In this document: one piece after another, positions 1 to 30,722 of the stretch | How positions within the stretch are numbered: position 1 is the stretch's first letter | Layout: the number at the start of each line of letters is the position of its first letter | Source of the DNA: Chitinophaga pinensis | Lineage (GTDB): Bacteria > Bacteroidota > Bacteroidia > NS11-12g > UBA955 | Direction of reading: 5' to 3' | Assembly: GCA_945888525.1 (NCBI GenBank) | Contig: CAMDAF010000002.1 | Coordinates: 1 to 64,000 of the forward strand | DNA length: 64,000 nt | Made by a program: the position numbers and the translations under genes | Notes under the pieces: model-generated | The model's input: the letters and a program-made list of their open reading frames with translations, nothing else | Databases searched by the model: none | Told to the model about the DNA's origin: nothing

Positions 1-2849
1 ATTGTTTTATAAACTCTGTTTTTACCTTCTCTGAAGAAAGTCCATCTTCCACTGAGCTCATTGTTGATTTTGTAGCCTTGTTTAAACACGAATCCACTTT
101 TGTAATAATAGGTATACAATCCTCGCTTCAGATAAGGCGATTCAAATAATTGATTTATAAAGTCATATCCATTAACAACGCTATTTGGATTTTCTTCTAC
201 CTTCCCCTTTCGATAATCCTTTTGTTCAAAGTCATCATAATAGTATTCACTGTAATGTGAAGAGTAGGAAGCATCATAAGCTAGGCGCTTTTTGCTTCTG
301 AATTCACTCAATTTATAAATTGGCCCGAAAGCAGTGAAATACATGCTGTCACTTTTATCAAAATCAACTGTATACCTTAAATTGTCGGTGTCTCTGTAAT
401 TTGAGTATCGACCGCTTAAATACCCATGATCAAACGTATATTTTTCTTTAAAATATTTCGCGGTATCAAGATATCTTTCATTGTTGTTAAAGTACTTTAC
501 CAGCTCACCATGCGGAATGCCTTTATTAAAATGGCCATGGTAGATTGGATAACCATTTTTAAGCAAGCGCCAAAAATCGCCATTTACCGTGTCATTCTCC
601 ATAGGGTATACATAACTCATGAACTGAAAAGAATTGCTTTCAGAATACTTGTACTGCATGCCATTTAATTTGTTGTGGTGAAAATTGTATTGGTTTTTAC
701 TCTTAGCGTAATTAATTGACTCAACACACCATTGCCCTTCTTTACTGCCATAACTATAGGTCATCATCGACGGGTTTATAGAATTGAAATGCTTTTCTTT
801 CATTTTTGCATTCCCCCGTTTGCTTAAAGTAAAAACCCTCATTTCCAAATCGTCGTTTAATTTATTGTCATAGTATGAACTCGATACCGACCAATAGTCA
901 AAAATATCAATAAATCTTACTGAACCATTAAATGCACCGTCAACCAATGAATAATTGATTTCAGAGGATGGTCGAATCGATTTGTGCTTATTGCGTTTTA
1001 TTACGCTCTTGTCTAGTTCTAGTTTTATAACAATTTCAAGTCTTTTTTGTAAGCCAAAAAACTCTTCTATTTCAAACAATTGTGCCCTTAGTTTTTTAGG
1101 ATTTCTTTTGTAATCTATTTCCACTTTAAGATCTCCTGTATATTGCTCTTTCCCTAATAAAATTGTTTTATGTTGCTGAGGCAGCACCTTTAAAAAAAGA
1201 AGAATAAAATCATTCAAATCGTTGTCGTCTACATTTTCATTTTCAGACAAATAAGCCTCAAAACCTGCCTTAAAATGCTCATCTTGCTTGTACAGATATT
1301 TTCCCTTTTTCATAATGGTATCAACTAAGCTTAGTGTATCGTACTTCATTGGAATTTTAATCAACTTAATGATGCTTCCATTCTCTTTATTGCCAGAGAC
1401 TTTATAATAAATTGAGCTGTTCAAACCACGTCCCTTTATCCATTTAACATCATTATAACCATAGTCCAAAGGTTCATAATATTGCTTTGTAATTAAGGCT
1501 TTATGACTCTCAAAGGTTTTACTGTATACATACGTATTTTTTTCACTAGGATTCAATTCAAAATATCTAGGTGTTTTATACTCATCTGTAATTTCTCCTT
1601 TTCGGTTGAAGGTTTTTTGAACCAAGAGTGTGGCGCAATAGCCATTCGAATTTTGATAGGCACTGGATAAACCGTTACAGGTATCTAGAAGGTATTGTGC
1701 TTCAACTATTCTATCGTATCCCTCATTTTTGGTTCTAAAAAACTTGCCATTTATAATGGTATCCCTAATTGATCCATCTCTTTTGTAAAAACCAGGTTTA
1801 ACCCAAGCATCTATCCTAATTGTTTTATCGATTAAAACACCATTTTTAAAGTCGTAACGAATGAGGGCAATTGGCGCTGATGAACTGTAATTATACCTTT
1901 CAATGTCCACATCAGGGAATATAGCAATTGTCTTATAGTCTGGGAAATGCTTGATAACACTATCTCTTCCGTAAATAAATTTATTTACAATAACCCCATT
2001 AATGTATACCTCCTTTGCGCATTCTAAATCTTTGGTGTAAAAAGAAACCCCAAAATAATTCTCTCTATTGTATTTCGTGGTCCATTTACCTTCCTTTTCA
2101 TCATTCACATAATTCCCTTCAAACAAACTAAATTGTTTGATTTTTTTCTTTTCCTTCCAGTAAACAAAGTGCTTGTATGGTCCATTTTTTAAGCCTTGAT
2201 AGACAAAAAACTCATCAACCAATAAGGTGTCCTTTTTTACAAATTGATACGCTTTGACGGTTCCGTTTAATATCCCGTTTTCATAATTCAACTCAAATTT
2301 AGAACCATCAGACACTACCCGATTTTTTTTAAAGATGTAATGGTCATAATCGTATGAATAGTCACCGTCACTGCTATAATCATCATCATCCCAATTGTGT
2401 TTATAACTGGATTTAATATTTTGGTAGAGGGTAAAATGGCCGTCAATCAAGTCGTTTTTATAGGGTATGACACACTTAACATTTTGAGTATACATGGTAT
2501 AAATTGTGGCCTTACCCTCCTTCTTGTTGTCTTTAATGGTAAAAGTCGCATACACTTGATAAACCGTATCGTAAACAATTTCTTTTGCTATTTTTCTTTT
2601 GTTTTTCAAAACAAAATTGGTATTGTATATCAAATATTCTCCATCCTCTACACGCCCAATTACAGGTGGTAAATTAAGGTTGTTAAATCTTAACTGAGAC
2701 AAATTAAAATAGACATTAGAACCACGGTGGTCAATCGTTTGAGGGTAAACTCGGTAGAGCTTGCCTTTGAACATCGCCGATTTTTGAGAATAGGCTGAAA
2801 AGCCAATAAAAACGCAGAATAATAGAAGGATGGTTTTATTTAATTTCAT
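1..2849 (-). CDS. Secreted MORN/YwqK-like repeat protein, partial (runs off the left edge)
   Basis: Absent from the ORF track because no stop lies in the window. Reverse-strand reading from ATG at 2849 gives MKLNKTILLLFCVFIGFSAYSQKSAMFKGKLYRVYPQ..., a signal peptide followed by a long open frame with repeated NG/G/Y-type motifs. Confidence 0.8.
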   Translation of the reverse strand, partial: MKLNKTILLLFCVFIGFSAYSQKSAMFKGKLYRVYPQTIDHRGSNVYFNLSQLRFNNLNLPPVIGRVEDGEYLIYNTNFVLKNKRKIAKEIVYDTVYQVYATFTIKDNKKEGKATIYTMYTQNVKCVIPYKNDLIDGHFTLYQNIKSSYKHNWDDDDYSSDGDYSYDYDHYIFKKNRVVSDGSKFELNYENGILNGTVKAYQFVKKDTLLVDEFFVYQGLKNGPYKHFVYWKEKKKIKQFSLFEGNYVNDEKEGKWTTKYNRENYFGVSFYTKDLECAKEVYINGVIVNKFIYGRDSVIKHFPDYKTIAIFPDVDIERYNYSSSAPIALIRYDFKNGVLIDKTIRIDAWVKPGFYKRDGSIRDTIINGKFFRTKNEGYDRIVEAQYLLDTCNGLSSAYQNSNGYCATLLVQKTFNRKGEITDEYKTPRYFELNPSEKNTYVYSKTFESHKALITKQYYEPLDYGYNDVKWIKGRGLNSSIYYKVSGNKENGSIIKLIKIPMKYDTLSLVDTIMKKGKYLYKQDEHFKAGFEAYLSENENVDDNDLNDFILLFLKVLPQQHKTILLGKEQYTGDLKVEIDYKRNPKKLRAQLFEIEEFFGLQKRLEIVIKLELDKSVIKRNKHKSIRPSSEINYSLVDGAFNGSVRFIDIFDYWSVSSSYYDNKLNDDLEMRVFTLSKRGNAKMKEKHFNSINPSMMTYSYGSKEGQWCVESINYAKSKNQYNFHHNKLNGMQYKYSESNSFQFMSYVYPMENDTVNGDFWRLLKNGYPIYHGHFNKGIPHGELVKYFNNNERYLDTAKYFKEKYTFDHGYLSGRYSNYRDTDNLRYTVDFDKSDSMYFTAFGPIYKLSEFRSKKRLAYDASYSSHYSEYYYDDFEQKDYRKGKVEENPNSVVNGYDFINQLFESPYLKRGLYTYYYKSGFVFKQGYKINNELSGRWTFFREGKNRVYKT

Positions 2850-2948
2850 ATAATTGGTAACAATAAAAATAAGTAACGCAAGATACTTTAAAATAGTATG
2901 TTTTGGGCATTTGATTAATTCAGCCGAGGACATACTAACAAAAAACGT

Positions 2949-2956
2949 TACCTTTG
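2949..2956 (+). promoter_or_regulatory. -7 box TACCTTTG upstream of der
   Basis: Exact match to the Bacteroidetes TAnnTTTG consensus, 7 nt before the ATG at 2964. Confidence 0.6.
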
Positions 2957-2963
2957 TGACCAA

Positions 2964-4283
2964 ATGTCAAGAATAGTCGCCATAGTAGGCAGACCCAATG
3001 TCGGTAAATCAACCTTGTTCAATCGTCTAACCGGCGAAAGAAAAGCAATTGTTGATGATTTTAGTGGAGTAACGCGTGATAGACACTACGGTGACAGCGA
3101 GTGGAATGGTCAATCTTTTACCGTAATCGATACAGGAGGATACGTTAAAGACAGCAAGGATATATTTGAATCTGCTATCCGCGAACAAGTTCAAATTGCA
3201 GTAGAGGAAGCTGCAGTCGTAATATTTATGGCTGATGTGCAAACAGATGTAACAGAATTAGATTCACAATTTGCAAATATTTTAAGAAAATCAAATAAGC
3301 CTGTTATAATGGTTGTCAATAAAGTTGATAACCACGATCAAATTCCAGAAACAGCCGTTTTTTACCGCTTAGGATTTCAAGAAATTTTTGCCATATCCTC
3401 TGCTACAGGTAGTGGAACAGGTGAATTATTAGACAAATTGGTTGAACTGCTTCCTGCTGATGATGGCAAAGAATTTGATGATGAAAACCTTGGTGAACTC
3501 CCTAAAATAGCCATAGTGGGAAGGCCTAACGTAGGAAAATCATCTTTTGTAAATGCTTTGGTGGGTTACAATAGAAACATTGTTACAGATATTGCAGGCA
3601 CCACTAGAGATTCTATTCATACACGTTACAATGCATTTGGCAAAGACCTGGTTTTAATTGACACTGCTGGTATTAGAAAAAAATCAAAAGTTGAAGAAAA
3701 TATAGAGTTCTACTCGGTTATGCGCAGCTTGCGTGCAATTGAAAATTGCAATGTTTGTATTGTCATGCTGGATGCACTGCAAGGTATTGAGTCGCAAGAC
3801 ATGAACTTGTTGTTTTTAGCCCATAGACACGGTAAAGGAATTATGATTTTAGTGAACAAATGGGATTTGTACGACAAAGGAAACAATACAGCCAAGGAGT
3901 ATGAAGAACACATTAAAAAAAGAACCGCACCTTTTGTAGATTATCCTGTTGTGTTTATAAGTGCGCTTAACAAGCAGCGTATTTTCCAAGCTATGGAAAC
4001 GGCTGTTAAAGTGCACGAAAACATGTCTAACCGTGTCAAAACAAGTAAGCTAAACGAATTAATGTTGCCGATTGTTAAGAATACGCCTCCTCCAGGGGTT
4101 AAAGGGAAAACCATTTCCATTAAATACATTCAACAATTGCCTTCCACATCGGTGTGCTTTGCTTTCTTTTGCAATCTGCCACAATACATTAGCGAATCTT
4201 ACAAGAGATTCTTGGAAAATCAGTTGCGTCAGAACTTTGACTTCAACGGGGTTCCAATTAAGATTTTCTTCAGAAAAAAATAA
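2964..4283 (+). CDS. der: Ribosome biogenesis GTPase Der (EngA)
   Basis: Two tandem GTPase domains, each with GRPNVGKS, plus DTGG/DTAG and NKVD/NKWD motifs and a C-terminal KH-like domain. Confidence 0.98.
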   Translation: MSRIVAIVGRPNVGKSTLFNRLTGERKAIVDDFSGVTRDRHYGDSEWNGQSFTVIDTGGYVKDSKDIFESAIREQVQIAVEEAAVVIFMADVQTDVTELDSQFANILRKSNKPVIMVVNKVDNHDQIPETAVFYRLGFQEIFAISSATGSGTGELLDKLVELLPADDGKEFDDENLGELPKIAIVGRPNVGKSSFVNALVGYNRNIVTDIAGTTRDSIHTRYNAFGKDLVLIDTAGIRKKSKVEENIEFYSVMRSLRAIENCNVCIVMLDALQGIESQDMNLLFLAHRHGKGIMILVNKWDLYDKGNNTAKEYEEHIKKRTAPFVDYPVVFISALNKQRIFQAMETAVKVHENMSNRVKTSKLNELMLPIVKNTPPPGVKGKTISIKYIQQLPSTSVCFAFFCNLPQYISESYKRFLENQLRQNFDFNGVPIKIFFRKK

Positions 4284-4284
4284 T

Positions 4285-4683
4285 TCAACTTTCCTTTTTC
4301 TTAAAACCTAAAGATACGCTGTTGATGCAATAGCGCAATCCTGTAGGGGTTCCGTGTCCATCGGTAAAAACGTGCCCTAAATGTCCTTGGCAATTTGAAC
4401 ACAGCACTTCAACACGGTGCATGCCATGGCTGTAGTCGGGCTTTTCGAGGACCTTTGATTTGTCAATTGACTCATAAAAACTAGGCCATCCGCAACCAGC
4501 ATCAAATTTTGTCTTTGATTCAAATAATACTTGATTACATCCTTTGCAAACGTATTCGCCCTCTTCCCAAAACTTATTATAAGTTCCAGTGTGCGGCCTT
4601 TCCGTGCCTTTTTGCCTTAAAACCCTGTATGACTCTTCGCCCAACTCATTCAGCCATTCTTCTTCTGTCTTTTGATTACTCAT
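4285..4683 (-). CDS. msrB: Peptide-methionine (R)-S-oxide reductase MsrB
   Basis: CxxC zinc motifs, GCGWPSF, RYCINS active site. Start placed at MSNQKTEEEW rather than the ORF-track start at 4731. Confidence 0.95.
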   Translation of the reverse strand: MSNQKTEEEWLNELGEESYRVLRQKGTERPHTGTYNKFWEEGEYVCKGCNQVLFESKTKFDAGCGWPSFYESIDKSKVLEKPDYSHGMHRVEVLCSNCQGHLGHVFTDGHGTPTGLRYCINSVSLGFKKKES

Positions 4684-4858
4684 CTGCACAAATTTAAAGG
4701 TATTATTTCTATTGTTGTACTTGTCCAACAATTCAAAATCATATTAGTTTAGTGTACAATATTTTTTTGTTAGACAATTGGTAAACTTTATTTTTGAACA
4801 AATTACAAAACCCAGTGCTAAGTATTGAAAAAACGAATACTTGGTATTGAAAATCAAT

Positions 4859-6325
4859 ATGAGTGCAAGTATATTTTTTGCTGTGATCTTATCCTATTTC
4901 ACCGCTCTAATCATTATCAGTAGAATTACAGCTAAGAAAGCAGATTCTGCTTCCTATTTTATAGGCAACAAACAATCGCCATGGTACCTTGTTGCATTTG
5001 GAATGCTTAGTGATTCGCTAAGCGGCGTTACCTATATATCAGTTCCCGGTGCAGTATTAAACAATTCATTAACCTACCTTCAAGTGGTTATTGGTTACTT
5101 TTTAGGTTATTTTATAATAATGTATATATTGTTGCCGCTTTATTACCGTCTTGAATTGGTCTCAATTTACACCTATTTACAGCAACGCTTTGGAAAAAAT
5201 GCACAAAAAACTGGCTCATTTTTCTTCTTAATTTCACGTCTATTGGGCGCAGGTGGAAGACTTACCTTAGCCATTGGAGTGATGCAGATATTCGTATTTA
5301 ATGGCTATGGCATTCCGTTTCCATTAACGGCAGCAGTATTTATTGCCCTCATGTTACTTTATACCTACAAGGGAGGAATCAAAACATTGGTTTATACCGA
5401 TGCCTTTCAATCTCTCTTCTTAATTCTTGGTGTTGTGTTATCAATCGCGGCAATTGCCAGTCAATTAAATTATAATTTCTCAGACTTATTTGAAACAGTA
5501 AGGCACAGCAGTTTAAATAAAGTTATAGAAACCGATTATCTAAAAGGAAATTTTTGGGCAAAACACATACTAGGTGGTGCTTTGTTCACCGTTGCAATGA
5601 CAGGACTTGATCAAAACATGATGCAAAAGAACTTAAGCTTAAAATCGCTAGGAGAAGCCAGAAAAAATATGTTTTGGTTTAGCATTGTAATGGTGATTGT
5701 AAATGTACTTTTCCTCTCTTTAGGGGTTCTGCTTTATCACTTTGCAAATGTAAAAGGAATACACATTCCAGAAGTTAGCGACAATGTTTTTCCAACACTT
5801 GCGCTAGGCTACTTCGGAACTTTTACTGCTTTGGCGTTTATTATCGGCTTAACAGCAGCCACATTCAGCAGTGCTGATTCTGTATTAGCAACCCTAACAA
5901 CTTCATTTTGCATAGACTTTCTAGGATTCGGCATGAACGCAAAATACGGAGAAAAACAAGAAACCAGAATTAGACATTGGGTGCACATTGGCTTTGCTTT
6001 TGTTTTACTGCTGGTTATTGTTTTCATCAAATACGCCTTTAGTTCAAAGGCAAGTATTGATGTCATATTAAGTATGGCATCCTTAACCTATGGTCCTTTA
6101 ATTGGCTTATTTGCTGCGGGACTTTTTACCAAATACACCTACAACGATAAGCTAATTCCCTTGGTATGCCTAATATCCCCTGTGATTAGCTATTTGCTTC
6201 AACAAAATGGAAAAGCTTGGTTTGGCGGCTACCAATTTGGAAACGAAATTATTTTTGTGAATGGTTTTTTAACCTTTATATTTTTACTATTATTGAAAAG
6301 AAAAAACCTCTCTACACCGCTATGA
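4859..6325 (+). CDS. Sodium:solute symporter (SSS) family transporter
   Basis: Multi-TM protein with an SSS-type core (GGIKTLVYTDAFQ, TGLDQNMMQKNL). ATG at 4859 preferred over the TTG at 4841. Confidence 0.9.
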   Translation: MSASIFFAVILSYFTALIIISRITAKKADSASYFIGNKQSPWYLVAFGMLSDSLSGVTYISVPGAVLNNSLTYLQVVIGYFLGYFIIMYILLPLYYRLELVSIYTYLQQRFGKNAQKTGSFFFLISRLLGAGGRLTLAIGVMQIFVFNGYGIPFPLTAAVFIALMLLYTYKGGIKTLVYTDAFQSLFLILGVVLSIAAIASQLNYNFSDLFETVRHSSLNKVIETDYLKGNFWAKHILGGALFTVAMTGLDQNMMQKNLSLKSLGEARKNMFWFSIVMVIVNVLFLSLGVLLYHFANVKGIHIPEVSDNVFPTLALGYFGTFTALAFIIGLTAATFSSADSVLATLTTSFCIDFLGFGMNAKYGEKQETRIRHWVHIGFAFVLLLVIVFIKYAFSSKASIDVILSMASLTYGPLIGLFAAGLFTKYTYNDKLIPLVCLISPVISYLLQQNGKAWFGGYQFGNEIIFVNGFLTFIFLLLLKRKNLSTPL

Positions 6326-27822: not shown

Positions 27823-27841
27823 CACTCCTTTTAGGAAGATT

Positions 27842-27914
27842 CCTTGATAGCTCAGCTGGTTAGAGCGAGTGACTGTTAATCACTAGGTCCCTGGTTCGAG
27901 CCCAGGTCAGGGAG
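27842..27914 (+). tRNA. tRNA-Asn (anticodon GTT)
   Basis: 73 nt cloverleaf: TCCTTGA/TCAGGGA acceptor, GACTGTTAATC anticodon loop, GGTTCGAGCCC T-arm. Confidence 0.96.
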
Positions 27915-27917
27915 CAT

Positions 27918-27966
27918 AAAAAGAGAGTGAGAGTGAAAGCGAATGCGCCACTTGAACTCTCTTTTT
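27918..27966 (+). terminator. Terminator-like inverted repeat after tRNA-Asn
   Basis: AAAAAGAGAGT ... ACTCTCTTTTT with a 27-nt loop and a T-run. Confidence 0.6.
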
Positions 27967-28041
27967 TTATTCACTCTCATTTTCACCCTCACTTTCACTC
28001 TAAATCATGTCATACAATTTTTATTCAAAATCATATGACAT

Positions 28042-28102
28042 AAAAAAAGCTTGCACTTTTTAGGTGCAAGCTTTCAATTATCTGAATAGGTTAAGGGCTA
28101 CT
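28042..28102. repeat. Hairpin repeat copy A
   Basis: AAAGCTTGCAC-TTTTTAG-GTGCAAGCTTT (11-bp perfect stem) followed by CTGAATAGGTTAAGGGCTACT; second copy at 29757-29820. Confidence 0.85.
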
Positions 28103-28130
28103 GTAAAAGGATTTTCTTAATACCAACTTC

Positions 28131-28165
28131 TTTGTTATTAGCTTTGTTATTAGCTTTGTTATTAT
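28131..28165. repeat. Short tandem repeat, 12-bp unit TTTGTTATTAGC, about 3 copies
   Basis: cTTTGTTATTAGCTTTGTTATTAGCTTTGTTATTA read directly. Confidence 0.85.
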
Positions 28166-28204
28166 GTTTCTTTAAATTATAATTGCAAGTGAAAATTAAA
28201 AATA

Positions 28205-29035
28205 ATGTCTAATTTAAAATTAATCTACTTAATTCTTCCATTGATTGCCTTATTTTCAGGATGTAATAATCATCATAATAATTCATCCGATGAAATGATA
28301 TTAAACAATGCAATTGATGCTGGATGTTTAACTAATGGGAAATTAATCAAAGACCCAGCAACTGGAGAAGTTTATTATCAAAAACCAAGCGTTAAACAAC
28401 CCGGTAAAACTATTGATTATTTTGCCGATATGACATATAAATTTACTGATGGAAGTGAAAGTGGTAGATGGAAATGTGATGCCCTTTCCAATAACATCGG
28501 TTCTGACATGCAATTAGAAAATATTTGCCAAATTCACAACAAAGATTGTAAAAAAATAGGTGCAGAAATGGATATGAGTCTTGAAGAATATCATCAATGG
28601 CAGGACAAACAAATTGAGGCTATAAATTGGGAAGATGCAAACACGAACGCAGAGGGCGATATTGTTGACCCAAATTCAAACACAAGTACATATGAATCTA
28701 TAGAGAATCAACGTCAAGAATGCTACAATTGTAAAGGCACTGGCAAATGCAGGAAGTGCTGTCAATCATCTAAAAAACCATATTACATAGGCGATGGAAG
28801 ATATAATGAAAGACCTGAAATTAATCTTGGTTACGTCTTATGCTCTTCTTGTTATGGTCGAGGCCATACTCAAAGAAGTGCCCAATCTGGCGGATGGGAA
28901 CCGGATAATGACTGTTATACAAGTAATTGTCAAGATGGTTGGGTTCAATGTGATGAATGTAACCGCGGATATAATAGTGATGGAAAGGACATTGGTATAT
29001 GTAAATCATGCAAGGGAACTGGATACATGCAATAA
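28205..29035 (+). CDS. Lipoprotein with DnaJ-like cysteine-rich zinc-finger motifs
   Basis: Lipobox LIALFSGC; CYNCKGTGKCRKC, CSSCYGRGH, CDECNRGY, CKSCKGTGYM. Confidence 0.8.
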   Translation: MSNLKLIYLILPLIALFSGCNNHHNNSSDEMILNNAIDAGCLTNGKLIKDPATGEVYYQKPSVKQPGKTIDYFADMTYKFTDGSESGRWKCDALSNNIGSDMQLENICQIHNKDCKKIGAEMDMSLEEYHQWQDKQIEAINWEDANTNAEGDIVDPNSNTSTYESIENQRQECYNCKGTGKCRKCCQSSKKPYYIGDGRYNERPEINLGYVLCSSCYGRGHTQRSAQSGGWEPDNDCYTSNCQDGWVQCDECNRGYNSDGKDIGICKSCKGTGYMQ

Positions 29036-29112
29036 GGAGTTTAAACTAACTCAATGGAATATTTTATCATTTAATCCATAAACGGTTGTGGGTTGTATTT
29101 TGGGTCAATTAG

Positions 29113-29125
29113 GGGAGCATAAAAA
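29113..29125 (+). repeat. tRNA-Asn 3'-end-like direct repeat (GGGAGCATAAAAA)
   Basis: 13-nt identity to 27910-27922 (tRNA-Asn acceptor end plus downstream), preceded by a similar GGTCA. Confidence 0.6.
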
Positions 29126-29151
29126 AGCCATCCATATCGGATGGCTTTTTT
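29121..29151 (+). terminator. Rho-independent-type terminator
   Basis: AAAAAA-GCCATCC-ATATC-GGATGGC-TTTTTT. Confidence 0.85.
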
Positions 29152-29253
29152 TCTTCACCTTCACCCTCTCACTCACCCTAAACCAAGTGTGTCGGATTCT
29201 TCAATTCAAATAAATTAATAAGGTTAGATTTTTGACAAACAAGGTACTTTAAA

Positions 29254-29679
29254 CTATTCGACAGAATATTGTATTGATGCTGTTGCTCTTGCATTACCAT
29301 TATTGTCATCCAATTTCTTTTGGGCAAATGGGGAACCGTTTTTACTAACAGAGATGCTTAAAGCTATTTTTAGATGATTCTCAGTCCCGCCATTCCATCC
29401 CTTTTTGACGACACTTAAATCAGCAAGAAATCCACTTTTTACAGGCCCTATTGTTGTTTCCCAGTCTCCTGTATTGATAACAGATTGTATGATTTGATTA
29501 GATTCGTTGGTTATACTTGTATTTAGTTTTACCCCATAATAAGGCAATGAATTACTTTTTACTGCATATTTAATGTAATATTCATCACTATTTGAAGCAT
29601 CCTTAGCATCTTTCTTGCATCCAATTGCAAAGCTAAATAGAAGAGCAATTATTACTATTTTTACGTTTACAATTTTCAT
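29254..29679 (-). CDS. Hypothetical lipoprotein
   Basis: Lipobox-like LLFSFAIGCKKD; complete ORF. Confidence 0.7.
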   Translation of the reverse strand: MKIVNVKIVIIALLFSFAIGCKKDAKDASNSDEYYIKYAVKSNSLPYYGVKLNTSITNESNQIIQSVINTGDWETTIGPVKSGFLADLSVVKKGWNGGTENHLKIALSISVSKNGSPFAQKKLDDNNGNARATASIQYSVE

Positions 29680-29756
29680 TCCACAAATTTATATATTTTT
29701 AAATAATATACAACCAATTACCCTGTTCTTAAAATTACTAGAAATAAAAATACCAC

Positions 29757-29820
29757 AAAAAAAGCTTGCACTTTTTAGGTGCAAGCTTTGAATTTCCTGA
29801 ATAAGTTAAGGGCTATTTTA
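29757..29820. repeat. Hairpin repeat copy B
   Basis: Identical 29-nt hairpin core to copy A, with similar flank CTGAATAAGTTAAGGGCTATT. Confidence 0.85.
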
Positions 29821-30218
29821 AAACCTTTAAAGGCTGTTAAAGGTAGTTTAAGGAGTTTTATGAATAGATATTTCAATTTCTAGGTTTGCAAATTCTCTTA
29901 TCGACACAAGCAGCTGCTTACTAAAATAAATAGAAATAAGCATATAAAATTGAAATAAGGCATTTGTTTGTTTTTCATTTATCTGAATTACTTTTCTAAT
30001 TAAATTGAACGCTTGAGTCAATACAATAGTATGCATTTAATATGGAATATTTAATTCAAAAAGGGGCGGGGTGTTGATTATGTATTGAGCACTCCATCCG
30101 TTTTTTACACCATTTAGTCTTTTAAGCTCTCCTGATGCTTTCTTTAAATGCAGATTTTTTATATTTTTGAGCTAAATTAAATAGACCCATATTAAACACT
30201 ATTAGTTGAGAATCTTAT

Positions 30219-30722
30219 ATGATTAAATTGCTACTCGAAATATCAATGATTGGCTGCGGAATTATAGTCATAATTGCAGGGGTAATGGGCGCCAGAGAAT
30301 GGCTTACAATGCAAAAAATATCACATTTGTCTTTATCGCAATTACCCGTCAGTAAGACAACATTTTGCAACTTGGCCATTGAATGGTGTCACAGTAACAT
30401 TTCACACCCTAAATGCATAAAACCTAATTTAAGGTTAAGCTATTATCCCCATAAGAGTCGAGGTGGCGTGTATTATTCGAGTTCTCATGAATGCGTTATT
30501 TATGTCAATAGCCATAACAACATCAAACAAGTTACAAATACTGTTATTCATGAATATGTTCATGCACGTCAAAAAGACAAGAAATTCGACAAACTTTATA
30601 CGCATTACCAAAAAGAACATGGCTATGAGCAAAACCCTTTTGAGCTTGAGGCAAGAGAAGTTTCTAAAAAGCATGAAAATGAATGCTTAATTTGGGTTTA
30701 CAATAAAATTTATTCCAAGTAA
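30219..30722 (+). CDS. Small membrane-anchored protein with HExxH metallopeptidase-like motif
   Basis: N-terminal TM; VIHEYVHARQ followed by ELEAREVSKK. Confidence 0.6.
   Translation: MIKLLLEISMIGCGIIVIIAGVMGAREWLTMQKISHLSLSQLPVSKTTFCNLAIEWCHSNISHPKCIKPNLRLSYYPHKSRGGVYYSSSHECVIYVNSHNNIKQVTNTVIHEYVHARQKDKKFDKLYTHYQKEHGYEQNPFELEAREVSKKHENECLIWVYNKIYSK

What the first reader, a model, noticed from the sequence alone, without database searches (positions are those of the whole stretch)
27842..29820. tRNA-Asn 3'-end segment and a 29-nt hairpin are both duplicated in the same order, bracketing two orphan lipoprotein genes
Seen directly: (i) GGGAGCATAAAAA at the tRNA-Asn 3' end (27910-27922) recurs at 29113-29125, preceded in both by GGTCA and followed in both by a terminator hairpin and a pyrimidine-rich TTCAC..CACCCTCAC..CTAAA tract; (ii) the hairpin AAAGCTTGCACTTTTTAGGTGCAAGCTTT plus CTGAATArGTTAAGGGCTAyT occurs at 28042-28102 and again at 29757-29820. 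The order is tRNA 3' end, terminator, tail, hairpin A, lipoprotein 1, tRNA-end scar, terminator, tail, lipoprotein 2, hairpin B. tRNA 3' ends are classic integration sites, so this could be successive insertion or a tandem duplication followed by divergence. No integrase is present in the window, so the mechanism is inference. This is my strongest candidate for an undescribed small cargo unit.
Basis: partly seen in the sequence, partly recalled or inferred. Interest (0 to 1): 0.7.

Follow-up and report, generated by a model that had tools for sequence, protein, structure and literature searches.

The report
Decayed tRNA-end array carrying cargo genes
The repeats are real: in this group of freshwater Bacteroidota the end of a tRNA gene has been copied downstream several times with cargo genes trapped between the copies, and related genomes suggest that small GIY-YIG DNA-cutting enzymes sitting beside tRNA genes help build such arrays, although this genome has lost its own.

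Summary
The described repeats are present. The 13-bp match alone is at chance level, but sister genomes show that it is a real tRNA-Asn 3'-end scar: GNAT–tRNA-Asn loci of the same genus carry up to seven or eight "GGGAGCA + terminator" scars, several with longer tRNA pieces, around changing cargo. The duplicated "hairpin" is not a recombination site. It is the minus-strand terminator (copy A also keeps the last codons, ...KKILLQ*) of T9SS/LamG cargo genes that are intact in sister arrays. Cargo moves laterally: lipoprotein 2 is 73% identical at fourfold sites to its copy in the G001 array, against about 30% for adjacent core genes. No integrase lies in the arrays. Instead, standalone GIY-YIG nuclease genes sit between tRNA and pseudo-tRNA copies in sister arrays and across Bacteroidota, often with their stop codon inside the tRNA 5' region; one other-family genome has about 8 tandem 364-bp units of pseudo-tRNA, terminator and GIY-YIG gene. 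That is the junction reported for phage SegB-driven amplification. Best reading: a decayed, GIY-YIG-less derivative of a nuclease-associated tRNA-end array. The nuclease's causal role is inferred.

The parts
27841..27915 (+). tRNA-Asn (GTT), intact; anchor of the array
   Evidence: ARAGORN and Rfam RF00005; conserved GNAT-tRNA-Asn order in sister genomes
27910..27922 (+). first copy of the GGGAGCATAAAAA motif (tRNA 3' end and start of the terminator)
27923..28003 (+). terminator-like arm plus pyrimidine tail, a repeat found behind several tRNAs and tRNA remnants of this genome
28046..28074 (-). hairpin A: intrinsic-terminator-like hairpin read on the minus strand, end of a lost T9SS/LamG gene
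28098..28169 (-). stub of a T9SS sorting-domain gene end (...EVGIKKILLQ*)
   Evidence: translation; intact LamG + Por_Secre_tail genes in sister arrays L039, L041 and in L042
28205..29035 (+). lipoprotein 1 (276 aa), with CxxCxGxG-like cysteine motifs; orphan cargo
   Evidence: no match in 110 other genomes of the order
29090..29119 (+). second tRNA-Asn 3'-end scar, GGGTTGTATTTTGGGTCAATTAGGGGAGCA
   Evidence: 87 bp at 87% identity to a G006 array scar
29121..29151 (+). terminator of the second scar (AAAAAGCCATCCATATCGGATGGCTTTTT), near-identical to scar terminators in G002 and G006
29155..29188 (+). pyrimidine tail of the second scar
   Evidence: D3
29254..29679 (-). lipoprotein 2 (141 aa), cargo shared with the G001 tRNA-Asn array
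   Evidence: 91% aa identity; fourfold sites 35/48 identical against 22/73 for the core GNAT
29761..29789 (-). hairpin B: second copy of the T9SS-gene terminator
29909..30063 (-). remnant of the 5' end and upstream region of another lipoprotein gene, intact near the tRNA-Asn array of G016
   Evidence: 92% identity over 155 bp (L052)
30219..30722 (+). metallopeptidase-like gene (weak DUF3920 match) at the far edge, shared with G009 beyond its scar and hairpin

Best explanation
The locus is a decayed array built at the 3' end of tRNA-Asn. Units were added between the tRNA and its native downstream DNA, and each unit ends in a copy of the tRNA 3' end with its own terminator, so the working tRNA keeps an end and a terminator and older ends are displaced as scars. 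Shown: the scars, their recurrence in sister genomes, the lateral movement of cargo, and GIY-YIG genes between tRNA and pseudo-tRNA copies in sister arrays and across Bacteroidota. Inferred: a standalone, SegB-like GIY-YIG endonuclease cuts at the tRNA locus; break repair, using the shared sequence of the tRNA 5' region and the nuclease gene's 3' end, copies the tRNA-nuclease segment in tandem; extra tRNA copies decay, often ending at short GC palindromes; nuclease genes are later lost; and recombination between scars brings in cargo such as lipoproteins and T9SS/LamG proteins. In this genome every standalone GIY-YIG gene is gone. Scar 2, the two T9SS terminators and the two lipoprotein genes are what remains.
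For: Scars: 'GGGAGCA + terminator' occurs up to seven or eight times downstream of tRNA-Asn in sisters, some with longer tRNA pieces (GAGCCCAG[palindrome]AGGGAGCA); terminators follow 20/27 GGGAGCA sites against 29/133 anagram sites, Fisher 3.6e-7, a figure that counts the functional tRNAs too. General tRNA-fragment pattern: among 102 tRNAs of three genomes there are 25 partial self-copies of at least 12 nt within 2 kb, against 0.85 (shuffled) and 1.5 (other isotype); upstream copies are 5' pieces 15:2, downstream copies 3' pieces 7:1; 15/25 abut a GC palindrome against 0.9% of random positions. GIY-YIG: of 37 standalone genes in 10 genomes, 22 lie downstream of an intact tRNA/tmRNA on the same strand and 7 more beside a pseudo-tRNA (my tally). 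In a set of 103 unique ORFs, 43 have tRNA-derived flanks against 21/600 control ORFs and 0 with reversed tRNAs; in 12 the stop codon lies in, or within 9 nt of, the tRNA match. A 7.9-copy, 364-bp tandem array of pseudo-tRNA, terminator and GIY-YIG gene exists in another family. In phage T6 the GIY-YIG enzyme SegB causes segmental amplification with its junction at the tRNA-Tyr 5' region / segB 3' region (PMC13096335). Mobility: lipoprotein 2 has the highest fourfold identity of 40 G000-G001 pairs (0.73, median 0.35); the array GIY-YIG gene is 17/19 identical at fourfold sites between G006 and G009 against 30/76 for GNAT.
Against: The own genome has no standalone GIY-YIG gene (only UvrC- and DnaQ-sized ones), so the enzyme's past presence here is inferred. 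No cleavage was shown, and coincident position is not causation. The window's second scar keeps only 6-7 nt of unmistakable tRNA sequence. Eight of 37 standalone GIY-YIG genes have no tRNA link; several near relatives sit in other repeats instead. How the non-nuclease cargo enters is not shown. Fragments at some tRNAs have no GIY-YIG gene nearby.
Confidence: 0.5

Rival explanations
1. Serial integration of small satellite-like elements at the tRNA-Asn 3' end by a tyrosine recombinase, with the integrase supplied in trans or lost.
For: 3'-end scars of 7-19 nt as direct repeats, displaced terminators, 131-bp tandem units each ending in a 19-nt tRNA 3' piece in G002, variable cargo and a near-empty site in G014.
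Against: No integrase gene was found among ORFs of the tRNA-Asn arrays read, and the genus's PF00589 hits mostly lie away from tRNAs; the one repeated association is with a conserved Thr-Tyr-Gly-Thr tRNA cluster in five genomes. Upstream 5' tRNA fragments are more numerous than downstream 3' ones, which integration at tRNA 3' ends does not predict. GIY-YIG genes occupy the junctions.
Confidence: 0.2
2. Unaided tandem duplication and slippage at tRNA loci, followed by decay and insertion of short palindromic repeats; GIY-YIG genes and cargo are passengers in a tolerant spot.
For: Partial copies occur at many tRNAs without a GIY-YIG gene, both 5' and 3'. The palindrome TCCCGATAGCTATCGGGA is dispersed in these genomes, also away from tRNAs. 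Tail units are repeated in tandem without tRNA pieces.
Against: The GIY-YIG to tRNA association is far above control ORFs, and its stop codon often falls in the tRNA 5' region in unrelated tRNAs (Arg, Pro, Val, Asp and others). Cargo and GIY-YIG genes are more alike between species than neighbouring core genes are.
Confidence: 0.2
3. The 13-bp match is chance and the hairpin repeat is just two similar terminators; there is no array.
For: The 13-bp repeat is no longer than other chance repeats in the same 3.5 kb. The hairpins are intrinsic terminators.
Against: The second scar region is 87% identical over 87 bp to a scar in G006, with the same terminator. Lipoprotein 2 with hairpin B recurs in the G001 tRNA-Asn array.
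Confidence: 0.05

Closest known systems
SegB, the free-standing GIY-YIG homing endonuclease of T-even phages (PMC13096335)
   Same: Small GIY-YIG nuclease gene beside tRNA genes; tandem tRNA-nuclease units whose junction joins the tRNA 5' region and the nuclease gene 3' end.
   Different: Chromosomal and spread over Bacteroidota rather than phage; extra tRNAs decay into pseudo-tRNAs with GC palindromes; cargo genes accumulate. In the window itself the nuclease is absent. Cleavage untested.
Genomic islands and satellites integrated at tRNA 3' ends by tyrosine recombinases (including tycheposons)
   Same: tRNA 3' end restored at each insertion, remnants left as direct repeats, variable cargo, near-empty site in a relative.
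   Different: No integrase found in the arrays, units down to 131 bp, and upstream 5'-half remnants as well.
Integron gene-cassette arrays
   Same: A fixed anchor followed by a variable row of small cargo units separated by repeated sites.
   Different: Separators are tRNA 3' ends plus transcription terminators. attC sites and an integron integrase were not specifically searched for.
Dispersed palindromic repeats (REP-like)
   Same: Short GC palindromes scattered in the genome and abutting many tRNA fragments.
   Different: They do not explain the copied tRNA ends, the terminators or the GIY-YIG association.

Membership tests
SegB-like GIY-YIG homing endonuclease amplification | GIY-YIG nuclease gene in the unit | tested here: not met
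   Absent in the window and in the whole genome apart from UvrC- and DnaQ-sized genes. Present in the tRNA-Asn arrays of G001, G004, G006, G009, G012.
SegB-like GIY-YIG homing endonuclease amplification | Gene lies beside tRNA genes more than expected | tested here: met
   In related genomes: 43/103 ORFs with tRNA-derived flanks against 21/600 controls.
SegB-like GIY-YIG homing endonuclease amplification | Tandem units with the junction at tRNA 5' region / nuclease 3' end | tested here: met
   In related genomes only: L336 7.9 copies, L200 and L203 tandem pairs, stop codons at the tRNA match in 12 ORFs.
SegB-like GIY-YIG homing endonuclease amplification | Site-specific DNA cleavage at the tRNA locus | not testable with these tools
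   Needs biochemistry.
tRNA-integrating island with tyrosine recombinase | Direct repeat of the tRNA 3' end at the unit boundary | tested here: met
   Second scar at 29113-29119, and longer scars in sisters.
tRNA-integrating island with tyrosine recombinase | Integrase gene in or next to the unit | tested here: not met
   No PF00589 hit in the window's stretch and none recognised among array ORFs. An integrase acting in trans is not excluded.
tRNA-integrating island with tyrosine recombinase | Empty-site allele in a relative | tested here: inconclusive
   G014 has tRNA-Asn 175 bp from the next gene while syntenic G004 has 5.6 kb, but loss cannot be told from never-inserted.
Integron cassette array | Integron integrase and attC sites | not tested
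   Separators here are tRNA ends with terminators; no dedicated attC or intI search was made.

The most novel reading that the evidence does not exclude
Across Bacteroidota, families of chromosomal GIY-YIG nucleases, each associated with one tRNA gene, copy and spread tRNA-end units and thereby build laterally exchanged cargo arrays at tRNA 3' ends: an integrase-free, integron-like island-building system of which this window is a relic.
Probability: 0.3. Interest if true: 0.8.

Novelty: new variant of a known kind. Interest (0 to 1): 0.6.

Why it matters
tRNA genes are the classic docking sites of genomic islands, and integrases are the usual explanation. If tRNA-bound GIY-YIG nucleases generate tRNA-end arrays and carry cargo between species, part of tRNA-linked variation in Bacteroidota would have another cause, and the arrays of tandem nuclease units and pseudo-tRNAs would be a chromosomal counterpart of the recently reported phage SegB amplification. 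My searches of the open-access library found no paper describing this in bacteria, though most subscription papers are not in it.

Tried and rejected
Chance match: rejected by the sister arrays. Hairpin as a recombination site: rejected, it is the terminator of T9SS/LamG genes. Rfam leader RNAs (Thr_leader, Phe_leader): far below gathering scores, so taken as chance. Integrases beside the arrays: none found. Lipoprotein 1: no match in 110 other genomes of the order, no Pfam or NCBIfam match at threshold, one meaningless PDB hit. The array GIY-YIG protein has no phmmer hit in the PDB. GNAT-anchored named loci outside the genus (L132-L198) have no tRNA-Asn next to GNAT, so they do not inform on this site. 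Literature on the palindrome TCCCGATAGCTATCGGGA: no paper.

Full report
OBSERVATION. The window (contig C2 of a 2.42-Mb Bacteroidota genome, G000) holds tRNA-Asn at 27841-27915. GGGAGCATAAAAA occurs at 27910 and 29113, the 70-nt hairpin block at 28039 and 29754 (90% identical), and a TTCAC-rich tract follows both scars. The hairpin occurs only twice in the genome with up to 3 mismatches. A 13-bp repeat is not unusual in 3.5 kb, so other genomes had to decide.

WHAT THE HAIRPIN IS. Both hairpins score as intrinsic terminators on the minus strand. In sister genomes the same block ends intact minus-strand genes with a Laminin_G_3 domain and a T9SS Por_Secre_tail: L039 3364-4710 and L041 1469-2518; a third such gene, with the hairpin block elsewhere in its locus, is L042 3793-5118. 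In the window, 28098-28169 on the minus strand reads ...EVGIKKILLQ*, the last codons of such a gene. Hairpins A and B are therefore read as relics of two T9SS cargo genes; for hairpin B no clear coding stub remains.

WHAT THE SCAR IS. In the genus the order acyltransferase-GNAT-tRNA-Asn is kept in most genomes and the DNA after the tRNA varies. The sister arrays hold repeated GGGAGCA + terminator units: G006 (L041) has seven or eight, G001 (L039) has several, and G002 has two tandem 131-bp copies beyond the tRNA, each with the 19-nt end GAGCCCAGGTCAGGGAGCA. Several scars carry the tRNA T arm interrupted by a GC palindrome. On the tRNA strand, 20 of 27 GGGAGCA sites are followed by a terminator, against 29 of 133 anagram sites (Fisher 3.6e-7; functional tRNAs are included in the 27). 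The window's second scar matches a G006 scar over 87 bp at 87%. Many contigs of related genomes end within a few hundred bases of this tRNA, as expected for repeats. The pyrimidine tail belongs to a repeat that follows tRNA-Phe, Arg, Met, Glu and Asn and three tRNA-like remnants in G000.

CARGO MOVES. Lipoprotein 2 has 73% identical fourfold sites with its copy in the G001 array, against 30% for GNAT and 30% for the acyltransferase; it ranks first of 40 ORF pairs (median 0.35; the 40 pairs are stop-to-stop ORFs and include some non-genes). The array GIY-YIG gene is 17/19 identical at fourfold sites between G006 and G009 (GNAT 30/76). SOUL in G001 and G015 shows the same trend (20/41 against 20/77), as does the peptidase-like gene shared with G009 (36/47 against 49/97 for GNAT).

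A GENERAL tRNA PATTERN. In 102 tRNAs of three genomes, whose tRNA loci were sampled regardless of GIY-YIG genes, I found 25 partial self-copies (at least 12 nt, within 2 kb) at 17 tRNAs; shuffled tRNAs give 0.85 and tRNAs of other isotypes 1.5. Upstream copies are 5' pieces (15:2) and downstream copies 3' pieces (7:1). Of the 25, 15 abut a GC palindrome, against 0.9% of random positions. The palindrome is also dispersed away from tRNAs, so it need not be specific to this process.

THE GIY-YIG LINK. In ten genomes of the genus I count 37 standalone GIY-YIG genes, leaving out UvrC- and DnaQ-sized ones: 22 lie 38-829 nt downstream of an intact tRNA or tmRNA on its strand, 7 more beside a pseudo-tRNA only, 8 neither (tally made by hand). 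Over a wider Bacteroidota set, 43 of 103 unique ORFs have tRNA-derived flanks against 21 of 600 control ORFs and none with reversed tRNAs; in 12 the stop codon lies in, or within 9 nt of, the tRNA match. The loci for this set were partly chosen by GIY-YIG score, and some because tandem hits were seen there, so the percentage is not a random-sample estimate. Intact tRNA may lie before or after the gene. L336, from another family, has 7.9 tandem 364-bp units of pseudo-tRNA, terminator and a GIY-YIG gene of about 82 aa. In phage T6, SegB-driven amplification uses the same junction, tRNA 5' region with segB 3' region (PMC13096335).

SYNTHESIS. Shown: tRNA-end arrays, their polarity, lateral cargo, and GIY-YIG genes at tRNA-to-pseudo-tRNA junctions. 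Inferred: cutting by the nuclease starts the duplications, and the window is a late derivative that has lost the gene. A trans-acting integrase and unaided duplication remain possible. Novelty is claimed only as far as the open-access library and my searches reach.

Noticed in passing
L336 (G163:C34:4500-12500), 2429-5324: About eight tandem 364-bp units of pseudo-tRNA with palindromes, terminator and an ~82-aa GIY-YIG gene, whose TAG stop lies in TAGCTC of the tRNA copy.
   Followed up: partly
L048 11128-11433, L345, L351, L354: Another GIY-YIG group not at pseudo-tRNAs; in L048 the gene sits among ACCCTGAGCGGAGCCGAAGGGT-type repeats, which may be its own partner repeat.
   Followed up: no
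G000 C7, C17, C18, C21, C44 (L009-L014): A GAGAGTGA...TCACTCTC tail follows many tRNAs of the genome and three tRNA-like remnants on C21, in places as tandem copies; it looks homogenised within the genome.
   Followed up: partly
G000, G001, G012 tRNA flanks: tRNA fragments abut palindromes of the form TCCCG...CGGGA or TCCGCCGCGGCGGA with differing centres; why arms are replaced this way is unexplained.
   Followed up: partly
L042 6640-6910 (G006 tRNA-Met): Two tandem tRNA-Met 3'-end copies with TCCGCCGCGGCGGA in the T arm, each with a terminator, followed by the same hairpin block and a LamG/T9SS gene as at tRNA-Asn.
   Followed up: partly
L064, L343, L349: Standalone GIY-YIG genes also lie just downstream of tmRNA genes.
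   Followed up: no
G000:C18:40222-40288: A second tRNA-Met copy lacking a proper 5' acceptor strand, probably a pseudogene, 3.6 kb from the intact copy.
   Followed up: no
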